DNA of 64,000 nt from Rhodothermales bacterium (lineage in GTDB: Bacteria > Bacteroidota > Rhodothermia > Rhodothermales > JANQRZ01), in contig JBDUXZ010000030.1 in NCBI GenBank assembly GCA_039944855.1, forward strand, positions 1 through 64,000. Reading direction: 5' to 3'. The notes beneath the pieces were generated by a model. That model was not told where the DNA came from and did no database searches. It saw only the letters and a list, made by a program, of their open reading frames with translations. Made by a program: the position numbers and the translations under genes. How positions within the stretch are numbered: position 1 is the stretch's first letter; the number at the start of each line of letters is the position of its first letter. Of this stretch, positions 7,222-63,190 are shown one piece after another.

Positions 7222-8331
7222 ATGCAGTCTACGAACTCCGGCGGCGGCCCGCAAGCGCCGTCGCCGAAGCGCAACGTCGCCCGCCACGCGCTGCCGTCCG
7301 AGCGCACCGAACGCCCCGCGATCCCAGGCGGGCGCACTTCTTCTACTAGCTACAAGGCGGCTTCTACCGCAGGCGGTGGCGGCCTCGACGAGTGCCCCTG
7401 GCCGGTCGGGGACCTCACCGATCGCTCGACGGGGGAGGTGTTCGGGAAGCCCTGCGAGCGCCGGTGGTGCCCGTACTGCGGCGAGCGTCTGTACCGGTGC
7501 CACGTCGCCCACTTCACGGAGGTCTTCCGCGACCTCCCCGACCTCTTCGCCGTCACGCTCACCCTCGATCCCAAGGTGCTCCCCGAGGAGTTCCGCTACG
7601 ACGCCCGTGCTCAGGAGGCCGTCCTCGTCGAGAAGGTCTGGACCCCGTTCCGGAGCAACTTCACGAAGGACTGCAAGAAGGCCGGCGTGGCGTTCACCTA
7701 CGTCGGGGCGCACGAGCGCCACGGCGGTCGCCACGGCGGGGTGCCCCACATCCACGCGCTCGTCTCGTGCCCGCTCCCGGACGCCGAGGAGGCCATGGCC
7801 GCGCGTTGGTTCCACTCAGGGGGCGGCGCCGTGCTCTCGGTGGAGCCCGTCGAGGGCGGCGAGCGCGGCGTGGCGCGGTGGCTCGGCTACTGCTTCAAGG
7901 GGTGGTTCGGGAAGACGGCTCCGCGTCACCGCCGGCTGCTCAGCAACAACGGGATCGGGTACCACTCGGCGGCGGCCAAAGCGCGCCGCCGGGAGCACGT
8001 GGAAGACCCGGACCGTTTCGCCTACACGCCGCCGGAGGAGGGCCTCCGCCGTGAGGACCCGGGTCGGGTGCGGGCGGCGCTCCCCGTCGGCGCCATCGAA
8101 CTCCAATTCGATCGGCGCTCGACCCGCTACCTCCGCTACGTCGAGGGCACGCCGTACGGGGTGCAGGTGGACCTCGACGAGAGGGGGGCGCAGACGTACA
8201 CGCTCGTGGAAACGGGCCCCCAGTACAAACGACGCCTGGGGGGATATCCCACGGTCGGGAAGTGCGACTCTATGGCGGCGGCAAAGGCGGAGGCCAATCG
8301 CCTCGCGAACGAAGAGGGGGTAGAGGGTTGA
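7222..8331 (+). CDS. HUH-type replication initiator (rolling-circle Rep-like)
   Basis: A 369-residue protein. Residues 78-94 form a zinc-finger-like cluster (C78, C83-P-Y-C86, C93-H94) as in Rep_1-type initiators. The HUH metal-binding motif is PHIHALV (H176, H178), and the catalytic Y-x-x-K motif is GYCFK (Y223, K226). Such enzymes nick one strand at an origin and stay linked through Tyr. The first 50 residues are Ser/Pro-rich and disordered-looking. Its association with a recombinase and RadC suggests an integrated rolling-circle plasmid or a mobile element. It is distinct from the Rep_3-type initiator at 44968-46005. The family call is firm; current activity is unknown. Confidence 0.85.
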   Translation: MQSTNSGGGPQAPSPKRNVARHALPSERTERPAIPGGRTSSTSYKAASTAGGGGLDECPWPVGDLTDRSTGEVFGKPCERRWCPYCGERLYRCHVAHFTEVFRDLPDLFAVTLTLDPKVLPEEFRYDARAQEAVLVEKVWTPFRSNFTKDCKKAGVAFTYVGAHERHGGRHGGVPHIHALVSCPLPDAEEAMAARWFHSGGGAVLSVEPVEGGERGVARWLGYCFKGWFGKTAPRHRRLLSNNGIGYHSAAAKARRREHVEDPDRFAYTPPEEGLRREDPGRVRAALPVGAIELQFDRRSTRYLRYVEGTPYGVQVDLDERGAQTYTLVETGPQYKRRLGGYPTVGKCDSMAAAKAEANRLANEEGVEG

Positions 8332-8345
8332 TCTCGGTTGCCCTC

Positions 8346-8615
8346 ATGGATGAGATTGAGGTTGAGCAGGCCATTCGCTCGGCGGCGGCCGAGGCCGCCG
8401 CTAAGGAGGCGCACGCAGAAGCGTCGCCCGCTCGAGGATGCCGGAGGCGGCGAGCCGCTACGCTCTCGCCTGTCTCGACGAATCCTCTGCGCTACCCCGG
8501 AGTGCTACTGCTCCTGGTAGACCCCGCGATTGGGGCCGCGTGCGTGCGGGACCAATTCGATTCTACCCCCCATCGCACTTTAGCCCCTCCCCCTGCCGAG
8601 GCTCCGAACTCCTAA
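8346..8615 (+). CDS. Small hypothetical ORF after Rep (doubtful)
   Basis: An ATG 15 bp after the Rep stop opens 89 codons. The first 27 residues (MDEIEVEQAIRSAAAEAAAKE...) would form a plausible acidic/Ala-rich helix. The remainder is basic and Pro-rich and looks like unselected sequence. It may be a small Rep-associated protein that has lost its true C-terminus, or a chance frame. I do not recognise it. Confidence 0.3.
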   Translation: MDEIEVEQAIRSAAAEAAAKEAHAEASPARGCRRRRAATLSPVSTNPLRYPGVLLLLVDPAIGAACVRDQFDSTPHRTLAPPPAEAPNS

Positions 8616-8757
8616 GCGGGCCGCATGCCGTCTCACAACCGGTATCGTTTTCGCGCACGGTATTTGATGCGGACCGGGGCGCCTGCACCCACCGATCCAC
8701 CCAGCGACACCCTATTATGCTTGGCTTCCCTTTGATTTCTAATGCAGTATCCCTCCT

Positions 8758-8766
8758 CCCCCCCCC
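8758..8766 (+). repeat. C9 homopolymer before signal-peptide start
   Basis: Nine consecutive C residues end 1 bp before the likely ATG at 8768. If translation starts at the in-frame ATG at 8717 instead, the tract is inside the coding sequence and length changes would shift the frame; if it starts at 8768, changes would alter the 5' untranslated region. Confidence 0.7.
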
Positions 8767-8767
8767 G

Positions 8768-11700
8768 ATGCGGCGGGCGCTCTCCGTCGCCCTTATTCTA
8801 GCGGGAGCCCTCAGCGGCACGCCAAGCTCCGCCCAGACCAGCGCGCCCGTGACCGGCGCGACCGCCTCCTACGACATCGAACTCGAGGCAGGGCCGAACC
8901 TCGTCGCGCTCCCCGTCGTGCCCGACGCGAACGCCGTCACGGACATCGTGTCGGGCGTGCTCCCCCAGCTCACGCTCGTGCAGAGCAACGCCGGGCAGTA
9001 CTTCATCCCCGCGCAGGGGATCGACGCGCTTGGCACGTGGAACTGGGCGGAGTCGTACAAGATGGTGCTGACCTCCCCGGCAACCCTCACGGTGGAGGGA
9101 CCCGAGATCTTGCCGCAGTTCTCGCCGGTCCTCCTCGAGAACGAGGTGGGGAACTGGGTGCCGTACTTCCGCCGCGAGCCGATGGCCGTGGCAGAAGCGC
9201 TCGCTCCCATCGCTGCGTCCCTCGCCCGTGTGGAAGCCGCCGACGGCCGCTTCTACCAGCCCGGCGACGAGGCTTCCACCCTCGACTCACTCCGCACGGG
9301 GCGGGGCTACAAGATCTGGGTCACGCAGGCCACTACCCTCACGTACCCCGCGAACCCAGCGCAGCCGTCGGATGGATCGACGGTAAACACTCTCGGTGAA
9401 GCGCTTGCGCTGACCGGGCTCACGCCGGGGCAGCAGATCGAGGTGCTCGGGTACTACGCGCCCGGCGACGGCGGCGGCGGCACGTTCCTCGTCACCGACA
9501 GCGGCGAGACGCCCGACGGCGGTCTCGTCTTTGTGCCATATGAGGCACAGGGTGTCCCCACTACCCATACGCGCATCGGCATCAACGCTAGCCACGCTAT
9601 CGGCAACCTCTCTGCGGGACAGGACGTGGTGTTTGGCAGCGTGAGTGTGGACCTCCTCAACCCGAACACGGAAGAACTTCTCCTCACCATCGACGGCAAG
9701 CACCTCCACGGGCATAACGCGTGGCAATCCAAAGATCAGCAGCCCATGTTCGACTACGAAACGGGTTACCTCCACGACTACGCCTACCGTATCTACGCAT
9801 ACTACGATGATCTCTACGGCACTCCCGTCACTACTTATCTGCGGACCACCTATCGCGTGACGACCTCCGACCTCCGCCTCGTCCGTCAAGGCGTAGAGGA
9901 CACGCTGAACGCCCGGTGGTTCGGAGCGAGGACGTACGCCGAGGACCCCGCCTTCGACAACCAGCCTGTCCTCGCCCAGATGATGAACGTGGCGAACGCT
10001 CGTAACGTGACTTCGCCGGGCTCGGTGACAACACTCTACCTTCCTAACATCAACGGGCAGAGCACCGTGTATGAATACTGGGGCTCCATCGAGATGGGCG
10101 ACGGGATGACCCTCGCAGGCGAGGCCGGGACGGAAGTGGTCGAAGCCATCACGACGCTAACGAGCCCTGGACTGGCTCTTGACGATGGCACCTACGTCGT
10201 CCACGATAGCCTCTCTTACACCGTCTCTGGAGACGTGGTGACATACACGTACTACCCCGTTCGCCGCCGCTCCGACGCTACGATCCTGCGAGTGAAGGAT
10301 GACAAGGCCCTCGAGTACGTCCGCCGTTATCGTAATCCCGGTGCTGAGGGGGCCTTGCCTAAGGATGCCAAGTCAGTCCTGAACACAGCCTCCACCGTAA
10401 TCACTAGCGCCCACGACATCATGTACATGGGGCTTGAGAACATCGTGCTCGACGGCAATTGGGAGGGCAACCTCGACGTCTACAACACCACTCTCGACCA
10501 TCTCGAGAGGGAGACGTACCTACGCAATTCCCCCGGCTGGTCCGGTTTCGTGAGCACGAACCATGGAAACAAGGCGATCCCGGTGGGGCAAGAGGTCGTC
10601 GTCCGGAACGCGGAGGTCTCGGGCTATGGGGCGACGGGCCTGCTCGGACACCAGAATGCTACCTGGCAGGGTGAGAACGTCCGCTCGGGGAACGCTGTCT
10701 ACAACCACAACCATTACGGGGCCAACGGGACGTGGGAGAACTACACGATGGAGGGGTTCGGGTGGACCCACGTCGTCTCGAAGGGGGACACCTTCCGCAA
10801 CTTCGTCTACGAAGACGCGGCCGACTCCCCGACGGCCCGCTCCGGTCCTGAGATCATCAACTACCGCAACGATCATGGTCGAGGCTTCGCCCTCGACGGG
10901 TTCTTCTTCGACTTCCGGGGCTCGTCGCAATACTCGGAGATCGTCAACGGGAACGGTAAGCCCATGCAGCAGACGGACGGCGTAGTGATCACCTCCCCAG
11001 ACGTGGGTTTCGCCACGCTCTACAAGCGGAATGGGATCAGCCAGGGGCTCCTCCCCAACAACGACTTCGTGAATATCGACGTGTTCGTGACCCAGAGCGC
11101 GGCGGCCGTAACGGGCTACCTCACCTCTACGGAATCGATCGTCGAGGACGTGCGGTTCGTCTCCGCGAAGCCGGACGGCACTCCGGCACGCACAGGCAGT
11201 CTGGGCGCCTTCCAAGGCGTGATGGGTGGCGGTTCGTCGTGGTTGCAGCCCAAGAACCGTGTTATCCGCGAGGTGGACCTCGCCCTAGGAGGCGCCTCCT
11301 TCGACATTCTCGACCTCAAAGTGAAGGAGAGTCTTGTAGAACCGATGGAGTGGTTCGTCCTCAACTCCAAGTTCAATAACACGAGCGCGGCCATCTTCAA
11401 GGCGAACGGAGCCGCAGCGGGTGAGCTCTACCGCTTGGAGGACCCCGACAACCCGTATGCGAGAGTACTCTTCCGCGACAGCGAGTTCAACGTGCCGCCG
11501 GGTTCCTACTACCTGTGGTATGAGACCTTCCTCACCTTCTCCTACCACGACAACTCCGTAGATCGCCTCACAGGAAAGACGAGTGAGAGTACGGGGACCG
11601 TGAACATGACGGCGGCGGGTGGCGAGACGTTCATCGACGTGGACCCCGACCTCTGGTGGGTCCCGATGCAGGCGGAGTACGTGACGTACACGGGGCACGA

Positions 11701-48612: not shown

Positions 48613-49156
48613 CGGGCGGTGGGGCTTTGGTGGGGGCGTCCGTGGCCTCGACAACCAGCATGCCACCCGCCGTCCCGCAGCGAACCCCCGAGTTCAATTC
48701 GCCGTATGCCCCGTTCGTTGCTCCTCCGTGGAGACCGCGCCTTACAAACCGCCGGAGTGTTCAGGCCACGCCGGCCCCTCGTCCTCCGCGTGTTCATTAC
48801 ATCACGGACGGGAGGGTTACGAAACCAACCCGTCACGCCGCACCATACGTCCCGGTGCCAAACCGGAACGGCCCTTGCAGTCAGACAAGGCCGTAGCCCC
48901 GGCCCTGGGTCCGGTCAGCGGTTCGAGCCGCGAGCGCGGAGTCGCGCAAGCGGAGTCGCGCCAAACGGTGAGATCCCTTGACCCGACCTGCGCCAGAAGC
49001 CTACTCCGCATGAGCCTAAGATGGCTCGACCGGCCTGTGTGAGTCCGTACATTCCGTTACTTGTGTAGGACCGCGTGCGATGCGCGTTTCAATCTTGAGT
49101 ACCGGGCACGGCTGCCCCGCTTTACCTCCACATCGCCCTCCGGGGCCCTATTGAAT
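48613..49156. other. Divergent intergenic region with shared 12-mer
   Basis: 544 bp between the leftward sorting-domain gene and the rightward Wzc-like gene. No gene is supported. It must hold both promoters. It contains GGTTACGAAACC at 48815-48826, an imperfect palindrome repeated exactly upstream of the WecA-like gene (52315-52326). Confidence 0.5.
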
Positions 49157-51499
49157 ATGAACGCTCCTAACCTCGATTCCCGCCGCGCTACGCCTGGATA
49201 TGCGCCTTCTTCGCAGTCGAAGAACAAGCAGATCGAGCGCGTGCTCGACGTCCTGTACCGCCGCCGGTGGATCATCGCTACGGTCTTCGTCCTGGTGCTG
49301 GCGGTGGGCGTCGTTTACACGCTGCAGCAGGAGCCGGCCTACCAGGCGACCTCCCTCATCATGGTGGAGCTCAACCGGATGCCGGGGGGGGAGACGGTCG
49401 TTTCCGAGGGGAACACGCCGTTCGTCCGCAGCGACCGCTCGATCGCCACGGAGCTCTTCATCCTCCAGAACTCGTACACCATCAACGCCCGCGTCAACGA
49501 GCGGCTCCGCGAGATGAGCGCCGAGAATCCCGACGTGGCGTTCCCACCCCGGGGCGGCGTGCAGTTCGGTCCGGCGAGCCGGAGCATCAACAACGCCCTC
49601 GCCGTCTCGGCCACGAGCTTGGACCCGCAAGAGGCGGCCCTCCTGGCCAACCTCTACGCCGAGGAGTACGTCCGCCAGACGCAGGACGCCAGCCGCACCC
49701 ACCTCGTCCAGACCCACGACTTCTTGGAGAAGCAAGCGGCGAAGCGCCGCGAGGAACTCCGGGCGGCCGAGGACGCGGTGGAGAACTACATGAGGCGGAC
49801 CGGCGCCGTGGGCCTCAACCAGGAAGGGTCGTCCCTCGTCGCTCGGATCGCGGGCCTCGAAGCGCAGCGTGACGAGGCGCGGATCGACATGCAGATGCGC
49901 CGGACCCAGCTCTCGTCGATCAACGCGCAACTGAGCGACATCAACGCGCAGCTCCCCAAGCGCGTCTCGTCCAACGTCGACCGCCGCCTGGCCGTGCTGC
50001 AGGAGAACCTCGCCCGGCTCGAAGAGGAGCGCCGCGTCATCCTGGGTTATACCGGGGCGCGGGATCAGAGACGGCTCGACGAGATCAACGCGGAGATCCC
50101 GCGTCTCGAAGCGGAGGTCGACCAGCTGACCGAGGAGTACGTGAACGAGGTGATGGCGGTCGGTGGGATCGAAGCGGGATCGAGCGCTGTCGGGTTCGCG
50201 GCCGAGATGAAGCGGAACGCGGTTCAGCAAGCCATCGAGGTCGAGGGTCTCGAAGCGCGTGTCGGGACGCTCACTAGCCGCCTGCGCGAGTACCAGGCGG
50301 AGCTGGCGAACATCCCGGGGCAGTCGACGGACCTCGCGCGGCTCGAGCGCACGCGGCAGCACGCCGAGCAGATGTACCAGTACGTCGTGGAGCGGCTCCA
50401 GGAGACGAAGATCTCCCTCGAGTCCGAGCCGGGGTACGCCCGCGTCCTCCGTCACGCCAGCGTTCCTGGCATGCCCTTCGGCGCCGACCCCTTCAAGAAC
50501 ATCGCGATGGCGCTCCTCCTCGGCCTCGCCGCCGGGATCGCCCTCGCCCTCGTCCGCGACAAGCTCGACAACCGGATCTACAAGCCCGACCAGCTCCGCG
50601 ACCGCGACCTCGACGTGCTCGGGGTGATCCCGGGGATGGAAGCCCTTATCAAGAAGGAGCACGGCGGGGACGAGTTCGCGGACTACCGCGGCCAGCGCAT
50701 CTCGACGAACCTGACGACGCTCCTCCAGCCGCTCTCCTCCACGTCGGAGGCGTACCGCCACCTCCGGACGGCCGTGCAGTTCAGCCGCCCCGGCGTCGTG
50801 GTGCAGACGGTCCTCGTGACGAGCGCGGCCCCCTCGGAAGGGAAGTCGACGACGGCGGCCAACCTCGCCCTCACGATGGCGCAGGCCAAGCGGCGCACGC
50901 TCCTCATCGACGCGGACATCCGCAAGCCGAAGCAGCACAAGATGTTCGGGTGCCCGATCGAGCCGGGCCTCGTCCAGCTCCTCTACCAGGGCGATGCCCA
51001 CCGCGATGCGGCCGTCGACGTGTTCCAGACCCCGTTCGACGAGAACCTCTTCGTCATGCCGGCCGGAGCGCTCGTGTCGGACACGCCGGGAGGGGAGGGG
51101 CCTACCCGTGTCGAGGAGCCGTCCGAGATGCTGGGCTCGAAGCGGATGCGCGACGTGCTCGAGACGCTCCGGGGCCAGTTCGACATCATCGTGATCGACT
51201 CCCCGCCCGTCCTCGCGGCGACCGACGCCGTCCTCCTCTCGACGCAGGCCGACGCGACGATCGTCGTGGCCTCCGCCGGGACGACGAAGGAGGGCGACCT
51301 CGAGCACAGCCTCGAGCGCCTCGGCGACGTGGGCGCCCACGTGATCGGCACGCTCCTCAACCGGTTCGACCTCTCGATGGCCTACGGCTACAAGTACAGC
51401 TACGGTCAGTACGGCCCGTACTCCAAGTACAGCTACGGGCAGGACGAAGCGCCGAAGCCGTGGTGGAAGCGTCTCCGCCGCGGCGAAGGGGTATCGTAG
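49157..51499 (+). CDS. Wzc-like polysaccharide co-polymerase with BY-kinase domain
   Basis: A 780-residue protein from the ATG at 49157. It has an N-terminal membrane segment (WIIATVFVLVLAVGVVYTL), a Wzz domain, long coiled coils (about 170-390) and a second membrane segment (NIAMALLLGLAAGIALALV). The cytoplasmic tyrosine kinase has Walker A (SAAPSEGKSTTAANLAL), A' (LLIDADIRKPKQHKMF) and B (IIVIDSPPVLAATDAVLLS). It ends in a Tyr cluster (YGYKYSYGQYGPYSKY...), the autophosphorylation tail. It would set chain length and coordinate export of the glycan. The frame is intact across a G8 run (49384-49391). Confidence 0.95.
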   Translation: MNAPNLDSRRATPGYAPSSQSKNKQIERVLDVLYRRRWIIATVFVLVLAVGVVYTLQQEPAYQATSLIMVELNRMPGGETVVSEGNTPFVRSDRSIATELFILQNSYTINARVNERLREMSAENPDVAFPPRGGVQFGPASRSINNALAVSATSLDPQEAALLANLYAEEYVRQTQDASRTHLVQTHDFLEKQAAKRREELRAAEDAVENYMRRTGAVGLNQEGSSLVARIAGLEAQRDEARIDMQMRRTQLSSINAQLSDINAQLPKRVSSNVDRRLAVLQENLARLEEERRVILGYTGARDQRRLDEINAEIPRLEAEVDQLTEEYVNEVMAVGGIEAGSSAVGFAAEMKRNAVQQAIEVEGLEARVGTLTSRLREYQAELANIPGQSTDLARLERTRQHAEQMYQYVVERLQETKISLESEPGYARVLRHASVPGMPFGADPFKNIAMALLLGLAAGIALALVRDKLDNRIYKPDQLRDRDLDVLGVIPGMEALIKKEHGGDEFADYRGQRISTNLTTLLQPLSSTSEAYRHLRTAVQFSRPGVVVQTVLVTSAAPSEGKSTTAANLALTMAQAKRRTLLIDADIRKPKQHKMFGCPIEPGLVQLLYQGDAHRDAAVDVFQTPFDENLFVMPAGALVSDTPGGEGPTRVEEPSEMLGSKRMRDVLETLRGQFDIIVIDSPPVLAATDAVLLSTQADATIVVASAGTTKEGDLEHSLERLGDVGAHVIGTLLNRFDLSMAYGYKYSYGQYGPYSKYSYGQDEAPKPWWKRLRRGEGVS

Positions 51500-51618
51500 C
51501 GCCGACGCCTCGGTGGAGGCGGCAGTGCGCCCGCAGCATGCAGAGCACGCCTCTCGGCCGTAGCTTTGCACGCTGCGGGCGTTTTGAACAACGACACCTC
51601 TTACCTACCCCTCTGCGC

Positions 51619-52125
51619 ATGCGACCCCTCTTCATCCCTATCACCGCCTTCGCCGCACTCCTGTCGTTTGCTCCTGCCGCGGCCCAGACGCCGCGCCCCA
51701 CCGACGTCATAGCCCAGGGGACCTCGTATTTCATCTTCGCGGCTCCGGGCGAAGCGACCATCGAGTTGCTCGTCTTGGGCAACACCAAGTCGGGCGTGTA
51801 CGTCGTCGGGGAAACGACGACCTTCACGGAGCTCCTCGCGCTCTCGGGCGGGACCGGGGCGTCCGACCAGAACCAGTCCGTCCGTGTCGAGCGAACGGTC
51901 CGGCTGCTGCGGGAGGAGGGGGGGGAGCGCGTCGTCGTGTACGAGGCCGACGCGGACGAGGCGCTCCGGCAGACCGGCGCGCACCCCACGCTCATGAACG
52001 GGGACATGGTTACGGTGGAGACGGAGGTCCACAGCCGCTTCAACCTCCGAGACACGCTGAGCATCGTGACCTCCCTCGCCAGCGTGACCCTACTGATCCT
52101 CCGCCTTGTTGATTCATCGAATTGA
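51619..52125 (+). CDS. SLBB-domain protein lacking the Poly_export domain
   Basis: A 168-residue protein from the ATG at 51619 with a signal peptide (MRPLFIPITAFAALLSFAPAA). A single SLBB-like beta-grasp is seen: LLVLGNTKSGVYVVGETTTFTELLALSGG, then RTVRLLREEGGERVVVYEADADEAL and MNGDMVTVETEV. The Poly_export domain that normally precedes SLBB in Wza-type channels is missing. It ends in a hydrophobic segment (LSIVTSLASVTLLILRLV). It lies between Wzc and WecA and may be a periplasmic or membrane adaptor in export. A G8 run at 51918-51925 is in frame. Confidence 0.75.
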   Translation: MRPLFIPITAFAALLSFAPAAAQTPRPTDVIAQGTSYFIFAAPGEATIELLVLGNTKSGVYVVGETTTFTELLALSGGTGASDQNQSVRVERTVRLLREEGGERVVVYEADADEALRQTGAHPTLMNGDMVTVETEVHSRFNLRDTLSIVTSLASVTLLILRLVDSSN

Positions 52126-52424
52126 GCGAGCGAATGAGCGGACGTCCGCAGAAGCGCACCTAGGATGCGCCAAACGTACACCCCCGTGCCCCCCCAGAGA
52201 GTGAGGGGCGGGCGAGACGGCATTATAGCTTCCGTAGAAGAGCAACGCCCCCACTCCCGCTCCAAGCGCGCTGAGCCCCGGAGCCCTCATTACCTCGCCC
52301 GTACGATAGGAGACGGTTACGAAACCCCTCCTCTATCGCTCCTGGCACGATTACCGCAGCTACGTGGGGCGGACGACATGAATACCCCTCCGTCCGCCCA
52401 TCACGAACGTAGCCTCTCGACCCC
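52126..52424. promoter_or_regulatory. Upstream region of WecA-like gene with GGTTACGAAACC motif
   Basis: About 300 bp without a gene. It contains GGTTACGAAACC at 52315-52326, preceded by TCATTAC at 52287-52293. The same 12-mer, also preceded by TCATTAC, lies upstream of the Wzc-like gene, so both may share a regulator. Confidence 0.4.
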
Positions 52425-53723
52425 ATGGAATACTCGGTGCTCATAGCGGGCTTCCTCGTCGCCTTCGGCACGACGGCTCTCACCACGCCCATCGTCCGCC
52501 GCCTCGCCATCGACTACGACTGGGTCGACCGGCCGGATGGGCAGCGCAAGCTCCACGCCGACGTGGTCCCCGCCATCGGTGGGATCGCCATCGCGCTCGG
52601 GTTCGGCGTGGGCCTCTCGTACCTCTACGCCGTCCGCGGGCTGCTCCCCTTCGACGTCGTGTTCCCCACGCCGGCGCTGTGGGCCGGCGCGCTCGCCATC
52701 GTCGCGTCGGGGTTCTACGACGACACGCGCGGGCTCGGGTTCAAAGGGAAGCTGGCTGTCCAGGCCCTCGTCGCCTACGCCCTCTTGCACGCGGGCTACC
52801 GCGTCGACGTCTCCGGGCTCCCCTTCGTAGGGGAGGACGTCTACACGCAAGCCCTCGTCTCCATCCCCGTGACGCTTCTCTGGATCGTGGGCGTCATCAA
52901 CGCGGTGAACCTCCTCGACGGCCTCGACGGGCTCGCGGCGGGGGTGTCGCTGATCGGCTTCGCGGCCCTCGGGCTCATCTTCGGGATCCACGGGGAGATC
53001 GGGCTGGTGATGATCGCGCTGATCATCACGGGGGCGCTCGCGGGCTTCCTCCTGTTCAATTTCAACCCGGCGTCGATCTTCATGGGCGACTCCGGGAGCC
53101 TGTTCCTCGGCTACCTCCTCGCGACGTACTCCCTCTCCGGCACGGGGCATGCGAACCCGATGATGGCCCTCGCCGTGCCGGCCGTGGTGCTGGGGCTCCC
53201 CCTCGTGGACACGGCGCTCTCCGTCGCCCGCCGGTTCGTGGAGCGGAAGGCGATCTGCGCCCCGGACCGCGACCACATCCACCACCGGCTCACGCGGACG
53301 CTGTCCCACCGCAACGCCGTGCTCGTGCTCTACGCCGTCGCGCTCAGCTTCGGCGTGGCCGCCGTCGCGCTCAGCGTCCTGCCCGTCGCGCTGGGGATCG
53401 TACTCATCGTGGGGGTCTTCGCGCTCACGGGGCTCGGGTTGAACCGGCTGAAGTACCTCCGCCGCAGCTACGTCGTACCGGACATCCACCCGATCGGTCG
53501 GTCCAGCGGAGCGGCTTCCGCCTCAGAGCCGAACCGTGAAGCGAAAGCGGGGGAATCGTCCGTCCGGTTCGCGGCTTCGAACGGGGACGGCGGCTCGTCC
53601 TCGGTGGACCTCGTATCGATGGGTCCCATGACCCCGGCTCGGGAGGTCACGTCCACCCGAAAGCTTGAGGGTCGCGCCATCGCCGACTCCCACGAGGCCC
53701 TCGCTGCCCGCGCGGCCCCTTGA
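52425..53723 (+). CDS. WecA/MraY-family undecaprenyl-phosphate sugar-1-phosphate transferase
   Basis: A 432-residue membrane protein with about eleven segments. Catalytic blocks are GFYDDTRGLGFKGKL (D-D pair), INAVNLLDGLDGLAAG, SIFMGDSGSLFLGYLLA and the cytoplasmic DRDHIHHRLTRTL (HIHHRL motif typical of WecA/TagO rather than MraY). It transfers GlcNAc-1-P or a similar sugar phosphate to undecaprenyl phosphate and starts repeat-unit synthesis. The C-terminal 75 residues are Ser/Ala-rich and disordered. The usual bacterial WecA is about 350 residues, so this tail is extra. Confidence 0.95.
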   Translation: MEYSVLIAGFLVAFGTTALTTPIVRRLAIDYDWVDRPDGQRKLHADVVPAIGGIAIALGFGVGLSYLYAVRGLLPFDVVFPTPALWAGALAIVASGFYDDTRGLGFKGKLAVQALVAYALLHAGYRVDVSGLPFVGEDVYTQALVSIPVTLLWIVGVINAVNLLDGLDGLAAGVSLIGFAALGLIFGIHGEIGLVMIALIITGALAGFLLFNFNPASIFMGDSGSLFLGYLLATYSLSGTGHANPMMALAVPAVVLGLPLVDTALSVARRFVERKAICAPDRDHIHHRLTRTLSHRNAVLVLYAVALSFGVAAVALSVLPVALGIVLIVGVFALTGLGLNRLKYLRRSYVVPDIHPIGRSSGAASASEPNREAKAGESSVRFAASNGDGGSSSVDLVSMGPMTPAREVTSTRKLEGRAIADSHEALAARAAP

Positions 53724-53792: not shown

Positions 53793-53897
53793 GCGCACGC
53801 CCGGCGTAGTTGAGGGATGGACACCTTCGCTTAGAGTTACTATACTCCGCAGATAGAAATGATCTCCGCTAGCCCCCCCGCATTTGTGAACGCCTTC

Positions 53898-54188
53898 ATG
53901 GTTACAGAGCGCTCGACCGTCGTAGTGAAGCCGGGTCTTACGGCCGCAGACCTAGGCGGAGAAGCCGTCGTCCTCGACCCCCATACCGGCCGTTACTACG
54001 GGCTGAACGAGCTCGGCGCCCGCATCTTCGAGCTCTCGCAGAAGCCCCGCTCTGTAGACCGGATCATGGCGGCCCTCCTGCAGGAGTACGACGTCGCAGA
54101 GGACCAACTGAGGACGGACGTGGTCGCCTTCCTGCGTGAGATGGAGAACCGCGAACTCATCGAGATCAGCGATGGCGCTCCTGCGTAA
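53898..54188 (+). CDS. PqqD-like RiPP recognition protein (lasso B1)
   Basis: About 96 residues from the ATG at 53898; an in-frame ATG at 53859 would add 13 residues. It has the whole PqqD fold: VVVKPGLTAADLGGEAVVLD, then GRYYGLNELGARIFEL and VDRIMAALLQEYDV, with VVAFLREMENRELIEI. The wing and strands bind precursor leaders and deliver them to the protease. In lasso systems with split B proteins this is B1. It starts a rightward operon whose next gene (B2) overlaps it by 17 bp. Confidence 0.93.
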   Translation: MVTERSTVVVKPGLTAADLGGEAVVLDPHTGRYYGLNELGARIFELSQKPRSVDRIMAALLQEYDVAEDQLRTDVVAFLREMENRELIEISDGAPA

Positions 54189-54633
54189 GTTCCTCGCCCG
54201 CTCGTGGGCCGACCGGGTGTTGCTCGTTCGTGCGTTCGTGCTCGTGAGCGCCGTCCGAATCGGGCTGTGGGTGCTGCCGTACCGGACCGTCCACCGGCTC
54301 GCGGACTGCCCCGTAGCGCCGCGAGCGATGACGCCGGATGAGGAGCGACGGAGCCTCCGTCGGATCATTGGAGCCGTCGAGGCGATGAGCCGCCGGCTCC
54401 TCGGGACGAAGCCGTGCCTCACCCAGGCGCTCGCGGCGCAGCGGATCCTCCGGCAGGAGGGGATGGACTCGACCCTGCGAATCGGCGTGGCGAAGGACGG
54501 CCAAGAGCTGCTGGCCCACGCGTGGCTCGAGCGTGGCACCCGGGTGCTCATCGGGGGGGGGCATTCGCCGCGGCTATACGCCCCGTTAGTACCGATGCGG
54601 CCAGAGACGCCCGCCCACCAGGAGCCGGCGTGA
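54172..54633 (+). CDS. Lasso-type B2 leader peptidase (transglutaminase-like)
   Basis: A 153-residue protein. After a hydrophobic/basic N-terminal region, the catalytic core is GTKPCLTQALAAQRILRQEG (Cys82) and LLAHAWLERGTRVLIGG (His116), matching lasso B2 proteases of the Transglut_core3 type. With B1 it would remove the leader so that the cyclase can act. Its codons for Gly128-130 lie in a G9 tract (54553-54561). It overlaps B1 by 17 bp and the cyclase by 4 bp (GTGA), so the three are coupled. Confidence 0.92.
   Translation: MALLRKFLARSWADRVLLVRAFVLVSAVRIGLWVLPYRTVHRLADCPVAPRAMTPDEERRSLRRIIGAVEAMSRRLLGTKPCLTQALAAQRILRQEGMDSTLRIGVAKDGQELLAHAWLERGTRVLIGGGHSPRLYAPLVPMRPETPAHQEPA
54553..54561 (+). 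repeat. G9 homopolymer in B2 coding sequence
   Basis: Nine consecutive G residues encode three Gly within VLIGGGHSP near the C-terminus of B2. A gain or loss of one base would replace the last 25 residues. Confidence 0.9.
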
Positions 54634-56729
54634 GCGCGGTCGCCGGGCTTTACCTGTTGGATGGCCGGGCCGTAGACCGGGCCACCCCGGCGCGTATGAT
54701 CGGCACGATGCCTCACCGGAGCCCCGACGGGTCCGCGGTGTGGACGGGGGGCGCGGTGGGGTTGGCCCACGGCGCATTCCACACGACGCCGGAGTCGCTC
54801 CACGAGGTGCTCCCGCTCACGAACGAGGCGGGCACGCTCACGATCACGGCCGACGCCCGGATCGACAACCGGGACGAGTTGATCGCCTGGCTGGCGCTCC
54901 CGAACCGGCCCGAACCGATCGCGGACAGCGAGCTCATCCTCGCAGCGTACGAGGCGTGGGGGGAGCGGTGCCTCGACCGGCTCGTGGGGGACTTCGCTTT
55001 CGCTATTTGGGACGCTCGCCAGCGGGCGCTCTTCTGCGCACGGGACTACGTGGGGACGCGGCCCCTGTACTACTACTACGAGCCGGGGCAGATCTTCGCC
55101 TTCGGGAGCGAGGTCAAAGCGATCCTAACGCTCGATGGAGTGCCAGAGGACATCAACGAGGTCAAGGTCGCAGACTATCTGTCGTGGAGCTGGGACGACG
55201 TAGAGAGCACGCTCTACGAGGGCGTCCTCCGCCTCCCTCACGCCCACGCCTTGAGGGTGGACGCACACGGGATACGGAAGTGGAAGTACTACGAACTCCG
55301 TCCGGTGCCCTCGGCGGGTTGCCACTCCGACGCCGACTACACGGAGCGCTTCAGGGAGCTCTTCACTGAAGCCGTCCGTTGCCGTTTGAGGAGCGCCTTC
55401 CCGGTCGCCTCCCAACTCAGCGGGGGGCTCGATTCCTCAGCCGTGTCTTGCGTTGCTCGAGACATCTTGCTAGGGGCGGGGCGGGGGGAGCTCCACACCA
55501 TCTCCCTGGTCTTCGACGAGGACCAGGCCAGCGACGAGCGCTCCTACATCTCGGCCGTCCTCGAGCAAGGCGGCTTCGTCCCTCATTTCGTCCCCGGAGA
55601 CACGGGGGGACCCCTGAGCGACCTCGACGAGATCTACGGCACGCTCGACAGCGAGCTGATTTCGGGGAATCCTCGTTTAGTATGGGTGATGCTCCAGGAG
55701 GCGCGCCGCAGGGGGGTCCGGGTCCTCTTGGACGGCCTGGACGGCGACAACGTGATCTCCCACGGGTACCTCCGGCTGAAAGAGCTCGTGGACGCCGACG
55801 ATTGGGAGGCCTTCGCAGACGAGGCCACCCAGCTCGTGGCGCGCTTCAAGAGCGCCGACCACATGCAAGAGGCCCAAAGAGAGATGGCCGACCCGAAGGC
55901 CTTGGCGAGGGTTTTCGGAACGTACGGGGTCCCACGCCTACGGGCCTACGCGGAAGAGGGCGCGTGGACTCGGTACTGGGAAGGCCTGCAGACGGCTAGG
56001 CGCGCCTTCTCCCTTAAGCGCGGCCCCTTGCTCAGGCGCCACTGGCGATACCTGCTGGCCCCTGCGTGGCTGCTCAAGTTGTGGAGGGCGTCCAAGGGGA
56101 ACGGGTCGGGGAGCGTCTCCGGCGCGCAGGTCCCTCCGCCGCTGTTGAGTCGGCAGTTCGCCGAACGGATCCGACATCGCGAGCGGCTCGCTGAGTTCGA
56201 GGGGCTCAAGTCCAACGCCGAGGGGGTGCGGGAGTCGCAGAGGGAAGTGTTGGGGGGGGGGAAGTTGGCAATAGGCCTCGAATTGGGAAACCTGTGCGCC
56301 AGTGCGCAACACGTAGAGATCCGTCACCCGTTCATGGACCGGCGTTTGGTAGAGTTCTGCCTGTCGCTTCCTTCCGAGTTCAGCCTCCGCAACGGTTGGA
56401 CGCGCTTCATCCTCCGACAGGCCCTCGTCGACGTACTGCCAGAGCGTATAGCTTGGCGCACCGGTAAAGGAAACATGGTCCCAACGTTCACCCCAGGCCT
56501 CTTCGAGCGCAACGACGAGCGATTACGCGAGCACGTAACGGACCTCGGCCCGCTCGCGGAGTTCGTGGACACTGAAGCGGTCCGCCGCATGTACGAGCGA
56601 GGAGCGGAGCTAGGCGAGCTAGACCAGGTCCGTTTGGCCGCAGTAGCCACGATGTCCTTCTGGCTCAAGCGGCGCCGTGAACCGTCCGTGGATACCGATG
56701 CCTCCGCTTCCGAAGATCGAAACGGTTGA
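54630..56729 (+). CDS. Asparagine-synthetase-like lasso cyclase (C protein)
   Basis: 699 residues from a GTG at 54630, overlapping the B2 stop. The N-terminal half keeps the amidotransferase fold (HRSPDGSAVW, GDFAFAIWDARQRALF) but begins MSAVAG and lacks the catalytic Cys2, so it should not hydrolyse Gln, as in lasso cyclases. The synthetase half has the PPi-loop LSGGLDSSAVS (near residue 265) and LLDGLDGDNVISHGY. It would adenylate an Asp or Glu side chain and form the macrolactam with the freed N-terminus. A G10 tract lies in frame at 56252-56261. Confidence 0.92.
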   Translation: MSAVAGLYLLDGRAVDRATPARMIGTMPHRSPDGSAVWTGGAVGLAHGAFHTTPESLHEVLPLTNEAGTLTITADARIDNRDELIAWLALPNRPEPIADSELILAAYEAWGERCLDRLVGDFAFAIWDARQRALFCARDYVGTRPLYYYYEPGQIFAFGSEVKAILTLDGVPEDINEVKVADYLSWSWDDVESTLYEGVLRLPHAHALRVDAHGIRKWKYYELRPVPSAGCHSDADYTERFRELFTEAVRCRLRSAFPVASQLSGGLDSSAVSCVARDILLGAGRGELHTISLVFDEDQASDERSYISAVLEQGGFVPHFVPGDTGGPLSDLDEIYGTLDSELISGNPRLVWVMLQEARRRGVRVLLDGLDGDNVISHGYLRLKELVDADDWEAFADEATQLVARFKSADHMQEAQREMADPKALARVFGTYGVPRLRAYAEEGAWTRYWEGLQTARRAFSLKRGPLLRRHWRYLLAPAWLLKLWRASKGNGSGSVSGAQVPPPLLSRQFAERIRHRERLAEFEGLKSNAEGVRESQREVLGGGKLAIGLELGNLCASAQHVEIRHPFMDRRLVEFCLSLPSEFSLRNGWTRFILRQALVDVLPERIAWRTGKGNMVPTFTPGLFERNDERLREHVTDLGPLAEFVDTEAVRRMYERGAELGELDQVRLAAVATMSFWLKRRREPSVDTDASASEDRNG
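56252..56261 (+). repeat. G10 homopolymer in cyclase coding sequence
   Basis: Ten consecutive G residues (with TTG before) encode VLGGGKLAIG. It is the longest homopolymer I see in the window. Slippage would truncate the cyclase, losing its last 155 or so residues. Confidence 0.9.
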
Positions 56730-56921: not shown

Positions 56922-57119
56922 ATGAAGAAGCTCTATACCGCTCCTCAGTTGAGCGATTTCGGCAGCATCAGCCAGCTCACGGCGGACAGCCGCGAGAACA
57001 GCACGGCCGACACCTTCTACACCGCGAACGGGAGCCAGTCAGGCGCCGGTGGCTCCATGGACGGTTGCGTGTTCAATCCTCAGACGCGCCGCTGTATCAA
57101 TCCCGCCGCGACGCCCTGA
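56922..57119 (+). CDS. RiPP precursor A1 (lasso-family leader)
   Basis: A 65-residue peptide. The leader MKKLYTAPQLSDFGSISQLT has the Y-x2-P-x-L-x3-G...LT pattern bound by PqqD-like B1 proteins. The C-terminal part contains GAGGSMDGCVFNPQTRRC and ends in NPAATP, with two Cys. Its first 103 nt are identical to those of the second precursor. The position between the cyclase and the kinase-like gene supports substrate status. Whether the product is a true lasso peptide, and where cleavage occurs, is uncertain: a cut after LTA would give a ring ending at Asp9, and a cut nearer GGSMD would give a ring closed at that Asp. Confidence 0.88.
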   Translation: MKKLYTAPQLSDFGSISQLTADSRENSTADTFYTANGSQSGAGGSMDGCVFNPQTRRCINPAATP

Positions 57120-57124
57120 TCCCT

Positions 57125-57150
57125 AGCGTTCCACGAGAGCGTTCCACGAG
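57125..57150 (+). repeat. 13-bp tandem duplication between precursors
   Basis: AGCGTTCCACGAG occurs twice in direct contact (57125-57137, 57138-57150), followed by a small hairpin TTCCCC/GGGGAA (57151-57165). It lies in the spacer between precursor genes and may be a scar of the gene duplication or a processing element. Confidence 0.6.
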
Positions 57151-57196
57151 TTCCCCCTTGGGGAAGTTAACAAACCATACCTAAACAGGTAAAACC

Positions 57197-57403
57197 ATGA
57201 AGAAGCTCTATACCGCTCCTCAGTTGAGCGATTTCGGCAGCATCAGCCAGCTCACGGCGGACAGCCGCGAGAACAGCACGGCCGACACCTTCTACACCGT
57301 GAACGGGACCCAGCCGGGCCTCGGCGGCTCCCTGGACGGCTGCGTGTTCTTCCCCCAGGGCCACCCGCAGGCGGGCGAGTGCCAGAACCCCGACGCCCCT
57401 TGA
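57197..57403 (+). CDS. RiPP precursor A2 (lasso-family leader)
   Basis: A 68-residue paralogue of A1. Residues 1-34 are identical, including at third codon positions. The C-terminal part is different: GLGGSLDGCVFFPQGHPQAGEC, ending QNPDAP. The GxGGSxDGCVF block and the two Cys are shared, while the loop between the Cys residues differs in length (8 versus 11 residues). The gene ends 18 bp before the kinase-like gene. It would give a second product made by the same enzymes. Confidence 0.88.
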   Translation: MKKLYTAPQLSDFGSISQLTADSRENSTADTFYTVNGTQPGLGGSLDGCVFFPQGHPQAGECQNPDAP

Positions 57404-57421: not shown

Positions 57422-58387
57422 ATGTCAGCGACTGCTCCTTGGGGGAGTCCGGCCAGCGATACTGAGATGGAGATGTTTTCTTACAGGGCCTACACGCTCA
57501 CGATCCACTCAGACATCAAGCTGGCCGGGCTCCCCCTCGGCGCAGGGCCCCCGGACGCTACGATAGTCCGTCGCCGGCTCTCCGAGGCCGAGCTCAGCGC
57601 GTCCTCACGAGAGGGGCTGTCTCGGGGTAGGATTTACGACGACTTGGAGTTCCTCATCGAAGACGGGACACGCATGGTGATCGACATGCGCGCGCCCATG
57701 GGGGACGACCTGCTGTGCTCGTACGTATTGGGGCCCCTGCTGAGCATCTTGCTCCGACAGCGGGGGCTCTTCGTCGTCCATGCGTGCTGCGTAGCTAGGG
57801 ACGGAGAGGCCATCGGTTTCCTCGGGGAGTCCGGGTGGGGCAAGTCCACGCTGACAGAGTTCTTCTGTCAGCGGGGGTACTCCCTCGTGACGGACGACGT
57901 GCTCGCCGTGGACCTCACGGCTGGGGAGCGCCCCCACGCTGTGCCGGGCTACCCCCACATCCGCTTGCTCCCCGGAGCCGGCGGCAGCTTGATGGGTGAC
58001 TTCCAAGCGTTACCGTTGGTGTTCGAGGGGGGGCTCAAGAGGTTGCTCGTGCGAGACGAGATGCCCGAGACGCCCCTCCCGCTGAAGAAGCTGTACCTGT
58101 TGAACGAGGACTACGCGCCAGCCCACGCGATAACACCGTTGTCGGCTTCCGAGGTGGTCCGTCGGCTGATTCGCCACACGCGGGTCATGCACGTGATGAC
58201 GAGCCCCCCCGTGCTCGCGCACCACCTCGGGCAGTGCTCGGAGTTGGTGCGCTCCGTCCCTATCAGCGAGCTGCATCGCAAGGCGTCCTTCGCTGCTCTG
58301 CCGGCCCTGTTCGATCTAGTGGAGCGCGATCTCGAGGCCCTCGTCCCGAGGGGTGCCGTAGCGAGCGTGGAAGCCGCGGGCAATTAG
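57422..58387 (+). CDS. HPr-kinase-like protein of lasso cluster
   Basis: A 321-residue protein with the HPrK/P C-terminal fold: FVVHACCVA (near residue 120), Walker A FLGESGWGKSTL (K141, S142) and SLVTDDVLAVDL with the D158-D159 pair, then HIRLLPGAGGSLM. Homologues in lasso clusters phosphorylate the C-terminal Ser of the precursor. Neither precursor here ends in Ser (TP and AP), so the substrate must be another residue or another molecule. Starts at 57467 are alternatives. A G7 run at 58027-58033 is in frame. Confidence 0.85.
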   Translation: MSATAPWGSPASDTEMEMFSYRAYTLTIHSDIKLAGLPLGAGPPDATIVRRRLSEAELSASSREGLSRGRIYDDLEFLIEDGTRMVIDMRAPMGDDLLCSYVLGPLLSILLRQRGLFVVHACCVARDGEAIGFLGESGWGKSTLTEFFCQRGYSLVTDDVLAVDLTAGERPHAVPGYPHIRLLPGAGGSLMGDFQALPLVFEGGLKRLLVRDEMPETPLPLKKLYLLNEDYAPAHAITPLSASEVVRRLIRHTRVMHVMTSPPVLAHHLGQCSELVRSVPISELHRKASFAALPALFDLVERDLEALVPRGAVASVEAAGN

Positions 58388-60245: not shown

Positions 60246-62099
60246 GTGAAAGGACGTGCTATTGAAGTGATCGGGCGCCTGGAGTATGCCCGACTCGCAC
60301 TCGGCTTCATCTGGGATTCCGCTCGTAGGTGGACCGTCCTCTGGTTCGCCTTACTCGTCGTCCAGGGGGTGATCCCGGCAGCGATCGTCTACCTCACGAA
60401 GTGGGTGGTGGACAGCGTGGCGTCCGTGGTGGGTGGGGGGGCTTCGTGGGAGGCCGTCGCACTCGTCCTCGTGCCTGCGGGGTTGATGGCCGGGCTCATG
60501 CTCCTGCAGCGCGTCCTCGGCGGGCTGAACGAGTGGGTGTCTACGGCCCAGGCCGAGATCGCAGGAGACCACATCAAGTCCCTCATCCATGAGAAGTCAG
60601 TAGCGGCAGATTTCGGGCTCTACGAATCGGCGGAGTACCACGACCAACTCGAGCAGGCCAACTCGCAGGCGAGCAGCCGCACGCTCCAACTCCTCAACAA
60701 CGTCGGGGGGTTGCTCCAGGCCACCGTCACCTTCACCTCCATAGCGGTCCTGCTCCTGCAGTACAGCCTGTGGCTACCGCTCGTCTTGGTCGTCAGCACG
60801 CTCCCGGCCTTCCTCGTCGTCGTCTACCACAACAAGAAGTACCACGCGTGGTGGGAGGAGATGACGCCGACCCGTCGTCGGGCGCAGTACTATGACCTCA
60901 TGCTCACCCGCGACATGACGGCGGCCGAGATCCGTGTGAACAACCTGGGCGGCCTCTTCCAGGAGGAGTACGGGGCGCTACGGAAGAGGCTGCGCGAGGA
61001 TCGGCTCGTGCTCCTCCGCAAGCAGGTCCTCGGGAGGCTCCTCGCCGCGGCCATCGCGCTTTTGGTGACCGGGGCCACGATGGCGTGGATCGTGCTCCGC
61101 GCCCTGGAGGGGCAGGCCACGCTGGGGGACCTCGCCCTCTTCTACCAGGCGTTCAACCAGGGGCAGTCCCTCGTCGGATCCTTGCTGCAAGGCATGGGCG
61201 AGATCTACACGAACACGTTGTTCCTAGAGCACGTCTTCGCGTTCTTGCGCCGGCGCAAAGAGGTGGTGGACCCCGACGAGCCCGTGCCCTTCCCGCGCGT
61301 GCTCGAGAGCGGGGTCCGCTTCGAGGACGTCACCTTCACGTACCCCGGCAGCGAGCGGCCGGCCTTGCAGGACTTCAACCTCCACATCCCTGCGGGGAAG
61401 GTGGTGGCCATCGTGGGGGAGAACGGGGCCGGGAAGAGCACCTTTATCAAGCTGCTCTGCCGGTTCTATGACCCCGACACGGGGCGGGTGACCGTAGACG
61501 GTGTGGACATCCGGAGCTTCGCGCAGGCGGACCTCCGCCACCACATCTCCGTCATGTTCCAGTTCGCGATGAAGTACCAGATGACGGCGTCGGAGAACAT
61601 CAGGATGGGCGACGTGAGCGCCCCATACGGGCGGGACGAACTCGAAGCTGCGTCGCGCAGCGCCGGCGCGCACGATTTCATCTCGGAGCTTCCCAAAGGC
61701 TACGACACGATCTTGGGACGGTGGTTCGCTACCGGCATGGAGATCAGCGGGGGGGAGTGGCAGCGGGTGGCGCTCGCTCGTGCGTTCTTGCGGCGCGCCC
61801 CCCTCATCATCCTCGATGAGCCCACCAGTTTTATGGACTCGTGGGCCGAGAACGACTGGCTCCGCCGGTTCCGGCGCATCGTGGAGGGGCAGACGGCCCT
61901 CATCATCACGCACAGGTTCAGCACGGCCATGCAAGCCGACATCATCCACGTCATGGACGACGGCAACATCATCGAGTCGGGCTCCCACGCGGACCTCATC
62001 GTGAGGGGGGGGCATTACGCGACGTCGTGGGCGGCGCAGATGCGCCAGGCCGGCACCCAGGCGGCTGCCGGCACCCAGGCAGCTAAGGTGATGGAGTAG
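60246..62099 (+). CDS. ABC exporter, fused membrane and ATPase (lasso D protein)
   Basis: 617 residues from a GTG at 60246. Six membrane segments are followed by an ATPase: Walker A (IVGENGAGKSTFI), Q-loop (VMFQFAMKYQMTASENI), signature EISGGEWQRVALARAF, Walker B (LIILDEPTSFMDSW) and H-loop (IITHRF). It lacks an N-terminal peptidase C39 domain, so it exports but does not cleave. It would export, and give immunity to, the mature peptides. The C-terminal tail has GTQAAAGTQAA repeats. A G7 run (60435-60441) and a G8 run (62005-62012) are in frame. Confidence 0.93.
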   Translation: MKGRAIEVIGRLEYARLALGFIWDSARRWTVLWFALLVVQGVIPAAIVYLTKWVVDSVASVVGGGASWEAVALVLVPAGLMAGLMLLQRVLGGLNEWVSTAQAEIAGDHIKSLIHEKSVAADFGLYESAEYHDQLEQANSQASSRTLQLLNNVGGLLQATVTFTSIAVLLLQYSLWLPLVLVVSTLPAFLVVVYHNKKYHAWWEEMTPTRRRAQYYDLMLTRDMTAAEIRVNNLGGLFQEEYGALRKRLREDRLVLLRKQVLGRLLAAAIALLVTGATMAWIVLRALEGQATLGDLALFYQAFNQGQSLVGSLLQGMGEIYTNTLFLEHVFAFLRRRKEVVDPDEPVPFPRVLESGVRFEDVTFTYPGSERPALQDFNLHIPAGKVVAIVGENGAGKSTFIKLLCRFYDPDTGRVTVDGVDIRSFAQADLRHHISVMFQFAMKYQMTASENIRMGDVSAPYGRDELEAASRSAGAHDFISELPKGYDTILGRWFATGMEISGGEWQRVALARAFLRRAPLIILDEPTSFMDSWAENDWLRRFRRIVEGQTALIITHRFSTAMQADIIHVMDDGNIIESGSHADLIVRGGHYATSWAAQMRQAGTQAAAGTQAAKVME

Positions 62100-62107
62100 C
62101 ACGTCGG

Positions 62108-63190
62108 ATGCGGCGGCTCGTTCGGGTGCTGTCCTTGGGAGGGGATCTCCTGCTCGGTGGGCTCTTCGTGGCCGGTAGCGCAGCGTACTTCGTCCCTCCG
62201 GGTCCCCTCTGGGTCCTTCAGTTAATCGCTCCAGCGGTTCCTTACCTTGGGGCTGCCGTGATAGGCGTGGCTGTTGCCATGGCGCTAACGCGGCGCTGGA
62301 TCGCCTTCGCAAGCCACCTCGCTATTTTGGTCGCCGCTGTTGCCGCACCGATGGGTTCGGGGGGGGCGGTCCCTGCCACCGTCCCACCCGCTACGCCTAC
62401 CCTCACAGTAGTGAGCTTCAATGCTCCGGGATTCTCCGGGAGGGCGTTCGAGCGACTGGTGACCGAGGCGAGGCCGCACGTCTTCGCGCTCCAAGAGGTC
62501 ACGGTCCAGGCGACCCCGCCATCCGGGCAGGTTCAGGGCGGGGGGCTCGTGGTCGTCCCCGCCCTCTTGGGCCGCGGGTACGGGCTCTCGCGGCTAGCCG
62601 GTGATGCGTACGCCCCCGTGCGGGAGCCCATCTTCTCCCTGCTCGAGCCGGCCGGCCCAGCCCAACTCGTCGCGGGGTACCCCCAGGAAGGGCTGTGGAG
62701 ATCGGGAGGGATCACGCGTTCGCTCTACCACTGGCAGGGGCGAGTCATCGCCGTCTACAGCGTGCACATGCACTCCTTCAGTGGAGAGCGGCCGTGGAAG
62801 CGGGTAGGGGGGGAGCGGCACGTGTTTTCGCTCTCGGCGTGGTACCGCGCTCTACGTTCCTACCGGGCTGATTTTCGGATACGGGCGGAGCAGGCGCGGG
62901 AGTTCCGTCGCGTGCTCGAATCGGAGCCGCACCCGTTCATCGTGTGTGGCGATCTCAACAGCACGCCGTACCACTGGGCCTACGCCCACCTCGCCGCCCC
63001 GCTGCAAGACGCGTTCAAGGGGGCCGGAAGTGGGTGGGGCGGGACCTACCACGCACGCCTCCCCCTCGTCCGGATCGACTACGTCCTGGCCAGTAAGGAG
63101 TGGGAGGTGCGGGCGGCTCGCGTGGATAAGAACGTGGCCTCGGACCACCGGCCCCTGGTAGCAGAACTCGCGTTACGGCCCCAAGAGTAG
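62108..63190 (+). CDS. EEP (endonuclease/exonuclease/phosphatase)-family membrane protein
   Basis: A 360-residue protein with three N-terminal membrane segments and an extracytoplasmic EEP domain: VVSFNAPGFSGRAFERLV (Asn), FALQEVT (Glu), YSVHMHSFSGERPW, FIVCGDLNSTPYHWAYAHL (D-x-N), IDYVLAS and SDHRPLVAEL (D-H). All catalytic residues are present. EEP proteins hydrolyse phosphodiesters or phosphomonoesters. It starts 8 bp after the exporter stop. A role in the peptide pathway (for example removing a phosphate-linked group) is only a guess. Confidence 0.85.
   Translation: MRRLVRVLSLGGDLLLGGLFVAGSAAYFVPPGPLWVLQLIAPAVPYLGAAVIGVAVAMALTRRWIAFASHLAILVAAVAAPMGSGGAVPATVPPATPTLTVVSFNAPGFSGRAFERLVTEARPHVFALQEVTVQATPPSGQVQGGGLVVVPALLGRGYGLSRLAGDAYAPVREPIFSLLEPAGPAQLVAGYPQEGLWRSGGITRSLYHWQGRVIAVYSVHMHSFSGERPWKRVGGERHVFSLSAWYRALRSYRADFRIRAEQAREFRRVLESEPHPFIVCGDLNSTPYHWAYAHLAAPLQDAFKGAGSGWGGTYHARLPLVRIDYVLASKEWEVRAARVDKNVASDHRPLVAELALRPQE

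What the first reader, a model, noticed from the sequence alone, without database searches (positions are those of the whole stretch)
56922..57403. Twin RiPP precursors with identical 5' segment and divergent 3' part
The first 103 nt of both genes (56922-57024, 57197-57299) are identical, including silent positions, while the rest differs strongly apart from a GxGGSxDGCVF block. This suggests recent duplication or gene conversion preserving the recognised leader, with diversifying selection or recombination of the product-encoding end. The enzymes would make two products from one leader.
Basis: seen in the sequence. Interest (0 to 1): 0.8.

Follow-up and report, generated by a model that had tools for sequence, protein, structure and literature searches.

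The report
Twin lasso-peptide genes sharing one ring
Two neighbouring genes in a Rhodothermales bacterium encode the starting peptides of two predicted knot-shaped (lasso) peptides; their identical stretch covers the removable leader and also the whole ring of the product, so the two products would share a ring and differ only in their long tails.

Summary
In detail: 56922-57024 and 57197-57299 are identical over 103 nt, and the rest diverges. It is not chance: all 13 differences in the 53 gap-free codons lie after the block (Fisher p = 5e-7; silent codons 0/33 vs 3/13, p = 0.02). The genes are the two precursors of a complete lasso-peptide cluster (B1, B2, cyclase, two A genes, HprK-like kinase, ABC exporter) of a type common in cyanobacteria. 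In 106 precursors from 78 loci, Asp/Glu falls nine residues after the predicted cut in 76, and the published YxxPxL position also puts the cut after residue 21. The leader is only 63 nt; the identical block also holds the predicted nine-residue ring (DSRENSTAD) and four tail residues. The products would share a ring and differ in 31-34 tail residues, each tail with a Cys pair. Zero silent change inside the block points to gene conversion or tail replacement; diversifying selection is not supported. Tandem precursors and mosaic identity recur in relatives, and multi-precursor lasso clusters are known (caulosegnins). Unusual: predicted cores of 44 and 47 aa (longest-tailed known lasso: 33 aa in total) and Asp at core position 1.

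The parts
53859..54188 (+). B1: PqqD-like leader-binding protein (RRE)
   Evidence: PF05402 E 3e-20; lasso PqqD family NF033536 69 bits (below its cut-off of 80); matches solved lasso B1 proteins 9x90 and TbiB1
54172..54633 (+). B2: transglutaminase-like leader peptidase (start inferred from relatives; the listed ORF starts at 54136)
   Evidence: NF033537 96 bits, cut-off 33
54630..56729 (+). C: asparagine-synthetase-like macrolactam cyclase (GTG start inferred from the G001 homologue)
   Evidence: NF033535 713 bits, cut-off 525; 52% identity to the G001 cyclase
56922..57119 (+). Precursor A1, 65 aa
   Evidence: NF033528 partial match E 3e-5, below the curated cut-off
56922..56984 (+). A1 leader, residues 1-21 (YTAPQL at -17 to -12, Thr at -2)
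   Evidence: PMC10368454
56985..57011 (+). A1 predicted ring DSRENSTAD (core 1-9, closed by Asp9)
   Evidence: Asp/Glu at core position 9 in 76 of 106 precursors
57012..57116 (+). A1 predicted tail, 35 aa, two Cys; first four residues TFYT shared with A2
57197..57403 (+). Precursor A2, 68 aa
57197..57259 (+). A2 leader, identical to the A1 leader
57260..57286 (+). A2 predicted ring DSRENSTAD, identical to A1
57287..57400 (+). A2 predicted tail, 38 aa, two Cys
57467..58387 (+). K: HprK-like kinase (start inferred from relatives; the listed ORF starts at 57422)
   Evidence: H105, K126, D143, D144 conserved in 97-100% of 77 homologues; weak HprK-family matches below cut-off; K homologue in 80 of 86 loci
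60246..62099 (+). D: ABC exporter (ATPase-permease)
   Evidence: PF00005 E 1e-31; homologue in 69 of 86 loci

Best explanation
56922-57403 holds two precursor genes of one lasso-peptide cluster. B1 would bind the shared leader (YTAPQL), B2 would cut after Ala21, and the cyclase would join the Asp22 amine to the Asp30 side chain around the tail, giving a nine-residue ring. The kinase probably phosphorylates a Ser, possibly that of the GGS(M/L)D tail motif, and the exporter secretes the product. Both genes would give the same ring with different long tails, each with a Cys pair (possible tail disulfide). The identical 5' 103 nt was homogenised by recent gene conversion, or left when one copy's tail was replaced, in an older tandem pair. 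Shown: gene content, homology, position statistics, mosaic divergence. Inferred: cleavage site, ring, disulfide, phosphorylation, two products, and the conversion event.
For: Complete cluster by profile matches with the order B1-B2-C-A-K-D kept in G001 and G046. Asp/Glu at core position 9 in 76 of 106 precursors against a 12% background; Y5-L10 at -17 to -12 and Thr20 at -2 as published. No silent change in 17.7 sites of leader+ring against 9.7 of 24.8 in the tail, run test p = 1.5e-5. Mosaic identity with other breakpoints in L050, L078, L041 and L027, and reversed in G001. Multi-precursor lasso clusters are known to work with one enzyme set (caulosegnins, PMC13352647).
Against: Asp at core position 1 occurs in no other of the 106 precursors; the ring also lacks the Gly3 that 68 of them have. 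Predicted cores of 44 and 47 aa exceed the characterised lasso peptides in the review read. The silent-site contrast taken alone is modest (p = 0.019). With two copies and no close homologue, conversion and tail replacement cannot be separated.
Confidence: 0.72

Rival explanations
1. One reading: the identical part is the leader and the product is only the divergent 3' part, for example a core starting near GxGGSxD with a seven- or eight-residue ring.
For: GAGGSMD and GLGGSLD could by spacing give a seven-residue ring, and the divergence starts just before it.
Against: No Thr at -2 there; the YxxPxL distance would be far from -17 to -12 (PMC10368454); relatives align with Asp9 after the earlier Thr, and their GSxD motif lies in the tail.
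Confidence: 0.08
2. Recent whole-gene tandem duplication followed by fast change of the tail alone (relaxed constraint or diversifying selection), without recombination.
For: Leader pN is lower than ring and tail pN across 14 multi-copy loci; the second half of the genes differs mostly by amino acid changes and indels.
Against: Silent changes also fall only in the 3' part (0/33 vs 3/13 codons), flanking spacers are unrelated upstream, and tail pN/pS is below 1.
Confidence: 0.15
3. One of the two copies is not used: a decaying or silent duplicate.
For: No expression data exist here; neither copy has a close homologue outside this genome.
Against: Both ORFs are intact and keep YxxPxL, Thr(-2), Asp9, GGSxDGC and a second Cys; tandem intact copies are common in relatives.
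Confidence: 0.1

Closest known systems
Cyanobacterial-type lasso clusters (NCBIfam NF033528 precursor, NF033535 cyclase)
   Same: Cyclase above the curated cut-off; leader, Asp9, D-F/T-x-(F/Y) start of the tail, GSxD motif, often two tail Cys and tandem precursors; B1-B2-C-A-K-D order
   Different: Rhodothermales host; precursors score below the family cut-off; Asp at core 1 and no Gly3; Ala instead of the usual Gln at -1
Caulosegnins I-III (Caulobacter segnis)
   Same: Several precursors processed by one enzyme set into different lasso peptides (PMC13352647)
   Different: Those products have rings of 8 and 9 residues; here the two predicted rings are identical and only tails differ
Pandonodin (class IV lasso peptide)
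   Same: Long tail with a tail-tail disulfide (PMC13352647, PMC9266682); here two Cys in each predicted tail
   Different: 33 aa in total against predicted 44 and 47 aa; the disulfide here is untested; no direct sequence comparison was made
Phosphorylated lasso peptides (paeninodin, pseudomycoidin, BsfA)
   Same: Kinase gene in the cluster with the His-Lys-Asp-Asp pattern (PMC9266682, PMC10368454)
   Different: Known targets are the C-terminal Ser or Ser3; here there is no C-terminal Ser and the site is unknown

Membership tests
Lasso peptide biosynthesis cluster | B2 leader peptidase and asparagine-synthetase-like cyclase together | tested here: met
   NF033537 96 bits (cut-off 33); NF033535 713 bits (cut-off 525)
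Lasso peptide biosynthesis cluster | B1 RRE protein of the PqqD family | tested here: met
   PF05402 above cut-off; matches TbiB1 and 9x90; lasso-specific PqqD models below cut-off
Lasso peptide biosynthesis cluster | Leader with YxxPxL at -17 to -12 and Thr at -2 | tested here: met
   Y5-L10 and T20 with Ala21 as -1 (PMC10368454)
Lasso peptide biosynthesis cluster | Asp/Glu at core position 7-9 | tested here: met
   Asp30 = core 9; 76 of 106 precursors of the set agree
Lasso peptide biosynthesis cluster | Macrolactam ring threaded by the tail in the product | not testable with these tools
   needs mass spectrometry and NMR
NCBIfam NF033528 (cyanobacterial lasso precursor) | Precursor score above the curated cut-off of 33 bits | tested here: not met
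   24.1 and 23.9 bits over the leader only
Phosphorylated lasso peptide (paeninodin type) | Kinase with His-Lys-Asp-Asp | tested here: met
   H105, K126, D143, D144 conserved in 97-100% of 77 homologues; the kinase was not aligned with PadeK or ThcoK
Phosphorylated lasso peptide (paeninodin type) | C-terminal Ser acceptor | tested here: not met
   Both precursors end in Pro; an internal GGSxD is the candidate instead
Class IV lasso peptide | Disulfide between two tail Cys | not testable with these tools
   Two Cys in each predicted tail; bond not testable

The most novel reading that the evidence does not exclude
The cluster diversifies by keeping one ring and exchanging tails: recombination swaps a 3' tail cassette behind a fixed leader and ring, giving lasso peptides of 44-47 aa whose tails extend past the kinase's Ser site and are closed by a disulfide.
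Probability: 0.3. Interest if true: 0.55.

Novelty: new member of a known kind. Interest (0 to 1): 0.35.

Why it matters
It corrects where the product starts, on which any expression experiment or mass search depends: the expected products are 44 and 47 aa starting DSREN, not the short divergent ends. If true, the pair is a natural one-ring, two-tails experiment on how far lasso enzymes tolerate long, variable, cysteine-bearing tails, and it shows that recombination in these precursors does not respect the leader/core border.

Tried and rejected
Core starting at GxGGSxD (seven-residue ring): rejected on Thr(-2) spacing and relatives. Close homologues of the precursors: none in plasmids or genome contigs; a 148-genome search of relatives gave only weak matches, of which the one in G001 is a real related precursor cut by a contig end. 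A third copy in the genome: none credible. PDB sequence match for the kinase: only P-loop matches at E 0.03 or worse. Hairpins in the spacers: folded; the spacer after A1 and those of relatives fold better than shuffles, the one after A2 does not, so no shared element is claimed. Paper search on gene conversion in RiPP precursors: none of the papers listed contained the term. Structure prediction was not used, since it would not decide the questions asked.

Full report
Observation. The two ORFs (65 and 68 aa) are identical for exactly 103 nt from the ATG, then diverge with substitutions and indels. In the 53 gap-free codons there are 13 differences, all after nt 103: Fisher p = 4.7e-7; a run of at least 103 identical nt arises in 1.5e-5 of random placements. 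Codons 1-34 hold 33 degenerate codons for shared amino acids, none different; codons 35-53 hold 13, three different (p = 0.019). The sequence upstream of the two genes is unrelated (shuffle p = 0.56); a 12-nt match lies downstream of both (p = 0.008).

What the genes belong to. The surroundings are a lasso-peptide cluster: PqqD-like B1, B2 peptidase (NF033537, 96 bits, cut-off 33), cyclase (NF033535, 713 bits, cut-off 525), the two precursors, an HprK-like kinase and an ABC exporter. B1 matches solved lasso B1 proteins by sequence. The nearest named relative is a Rhodothermales MAG (52% cyclase identity); most other good matches are cyanobacteria. The order B1-B2-C-A-K-D is kept in G001 and G046.

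Where the product starts. I collected 106 precursors from 78 loci, the window included, by a leader pattern. The first leader Thr preceded by a hydrophobic residue was taken as -2, a choice that uses no information on Asp. Core position 9 is then Asp/Glu in 76 of 106, against 5-20 at the other positions from 5 to 12 and a 12% background. A published study states that YxxPxL spans -17 to -12 and that Thr at -2 is the usual rule (PMC10368454); Y5-L10 and T20 of both window precursors fit with Ala21 as -1. The core is therefore predicted to be residues 22-65 and 22-68 (44 and 47 aa), with the ring DSRENSTAD closed by Asp30. The identical block thus covers the leader (21 codons), the ring (9) and TFYT (4). 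A review gives pandonodin, 33 aa in total, as the lasso peptide with the longest tail (PMC13352647). Asp at position 1 occurs in no other precursor of the set, which is a caution.

How the mosaic arose. Silent distance is 0 of 17.7 sites in leader plus ring and 9.7 of 24.8 in the tail (the tail alignment has gaps); tail pN is 0.20 against pS 0.39. Averaged over 14 multi-copy loci, pS is similar in leader, ring and tail (0.40, 0.41, 0.50), while pN is lower in the leader (0.135 against 0.28 and 0.26). Constraint on the leader is thus general. It cannot explain the absence of silent change in this pair, which points to recombination. Similar mosaics occur in L050 (147 nt identical, then divergent), L078, L041 and L027; in G001 the pattern is reversed, with 16 of 18 differences in the leader, the second copy being cut by a contig end. 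The p-values are uncorrected over 32 pairs within loci. In the three Rhodothermales duplicates (window, G046, G001) the ring is identical at the protein level. Conversion of the 5' part and replacement of one 3' part cannot be separated with two copies.

Kinase and tail. H105, K126, D143 and D144 are conserved in 97-100% of 77 homologues, like the His-Lys-Asp-Asp motif described for lasso kinases (PMC9266682). Known targets are the C-terminal Ser, or Ser3 in BsfA (PMC10368454). Among the 106 precursors, 37 have a Ser within the last three residues, and 50 of the rest have an internal [GDS]Sx[DN] in the tail; the Ser lies at median core position 28 in both groups (Mann-Whitney p = 0.93). The internal pattern was written after looking at the sequences, and the last match was used, so this is a lead for the kinase site (Ser24 of the window core), not a test. 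The two tail Cys suggest a class IV-like disulfide, untested.

Verdict. A real, non-random feature of an otherwise recognisable lasso cluster.

Noticed in passing
L028 (G000:C5), 7053-9885: A second lasso-type cyclase with an adjacent HprK-like kinase in the same genome; no B1, B2, exporter or precursor was recognised within the 16 kb examined.
   Followed up: partly
L014, L015, L017, L018, downstream of the cyclase: Several small precursor-like ORFs (leader ending ITA, then for example GSCWYGKQGGQYDADLGPGTLSDCR) without Asp/Glu at core 7-9, so perhaps not ordinary lasso cores.
   Followed up: no
L026, first 147 bases (G001 contig C19): A second precursor of G001, cut by the contig end: core almost identical in DNA to that of L025 but leader diverged (16 of 18 differences), the reverse of the window pair.
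   Followed up: yes
L041-L044 (Moorena), L050 (Tolypothrix): Arrays of three to five tandem lasso precursors in one cluster, with varying rings and tails.
   Followed up: partly
L025:8967-9110; L027:8729-8800 and 9226-9330: Strong hairpins just downstream of precursor genes (z about -3.7 to -3.8 against shuffles), perhaps setting precursor dosage.
   Followed up: partly
window 49061-53723 and 62108-63190: By reading of the ORFs, polysaccharide-export-like genes (chain-length/tyrosine-kinase-like, WecA-like) precede the cluster, and an Exo_endo_phos protein (PF03372) follows it; similar neighbours lie in L025.
   Followed up: no
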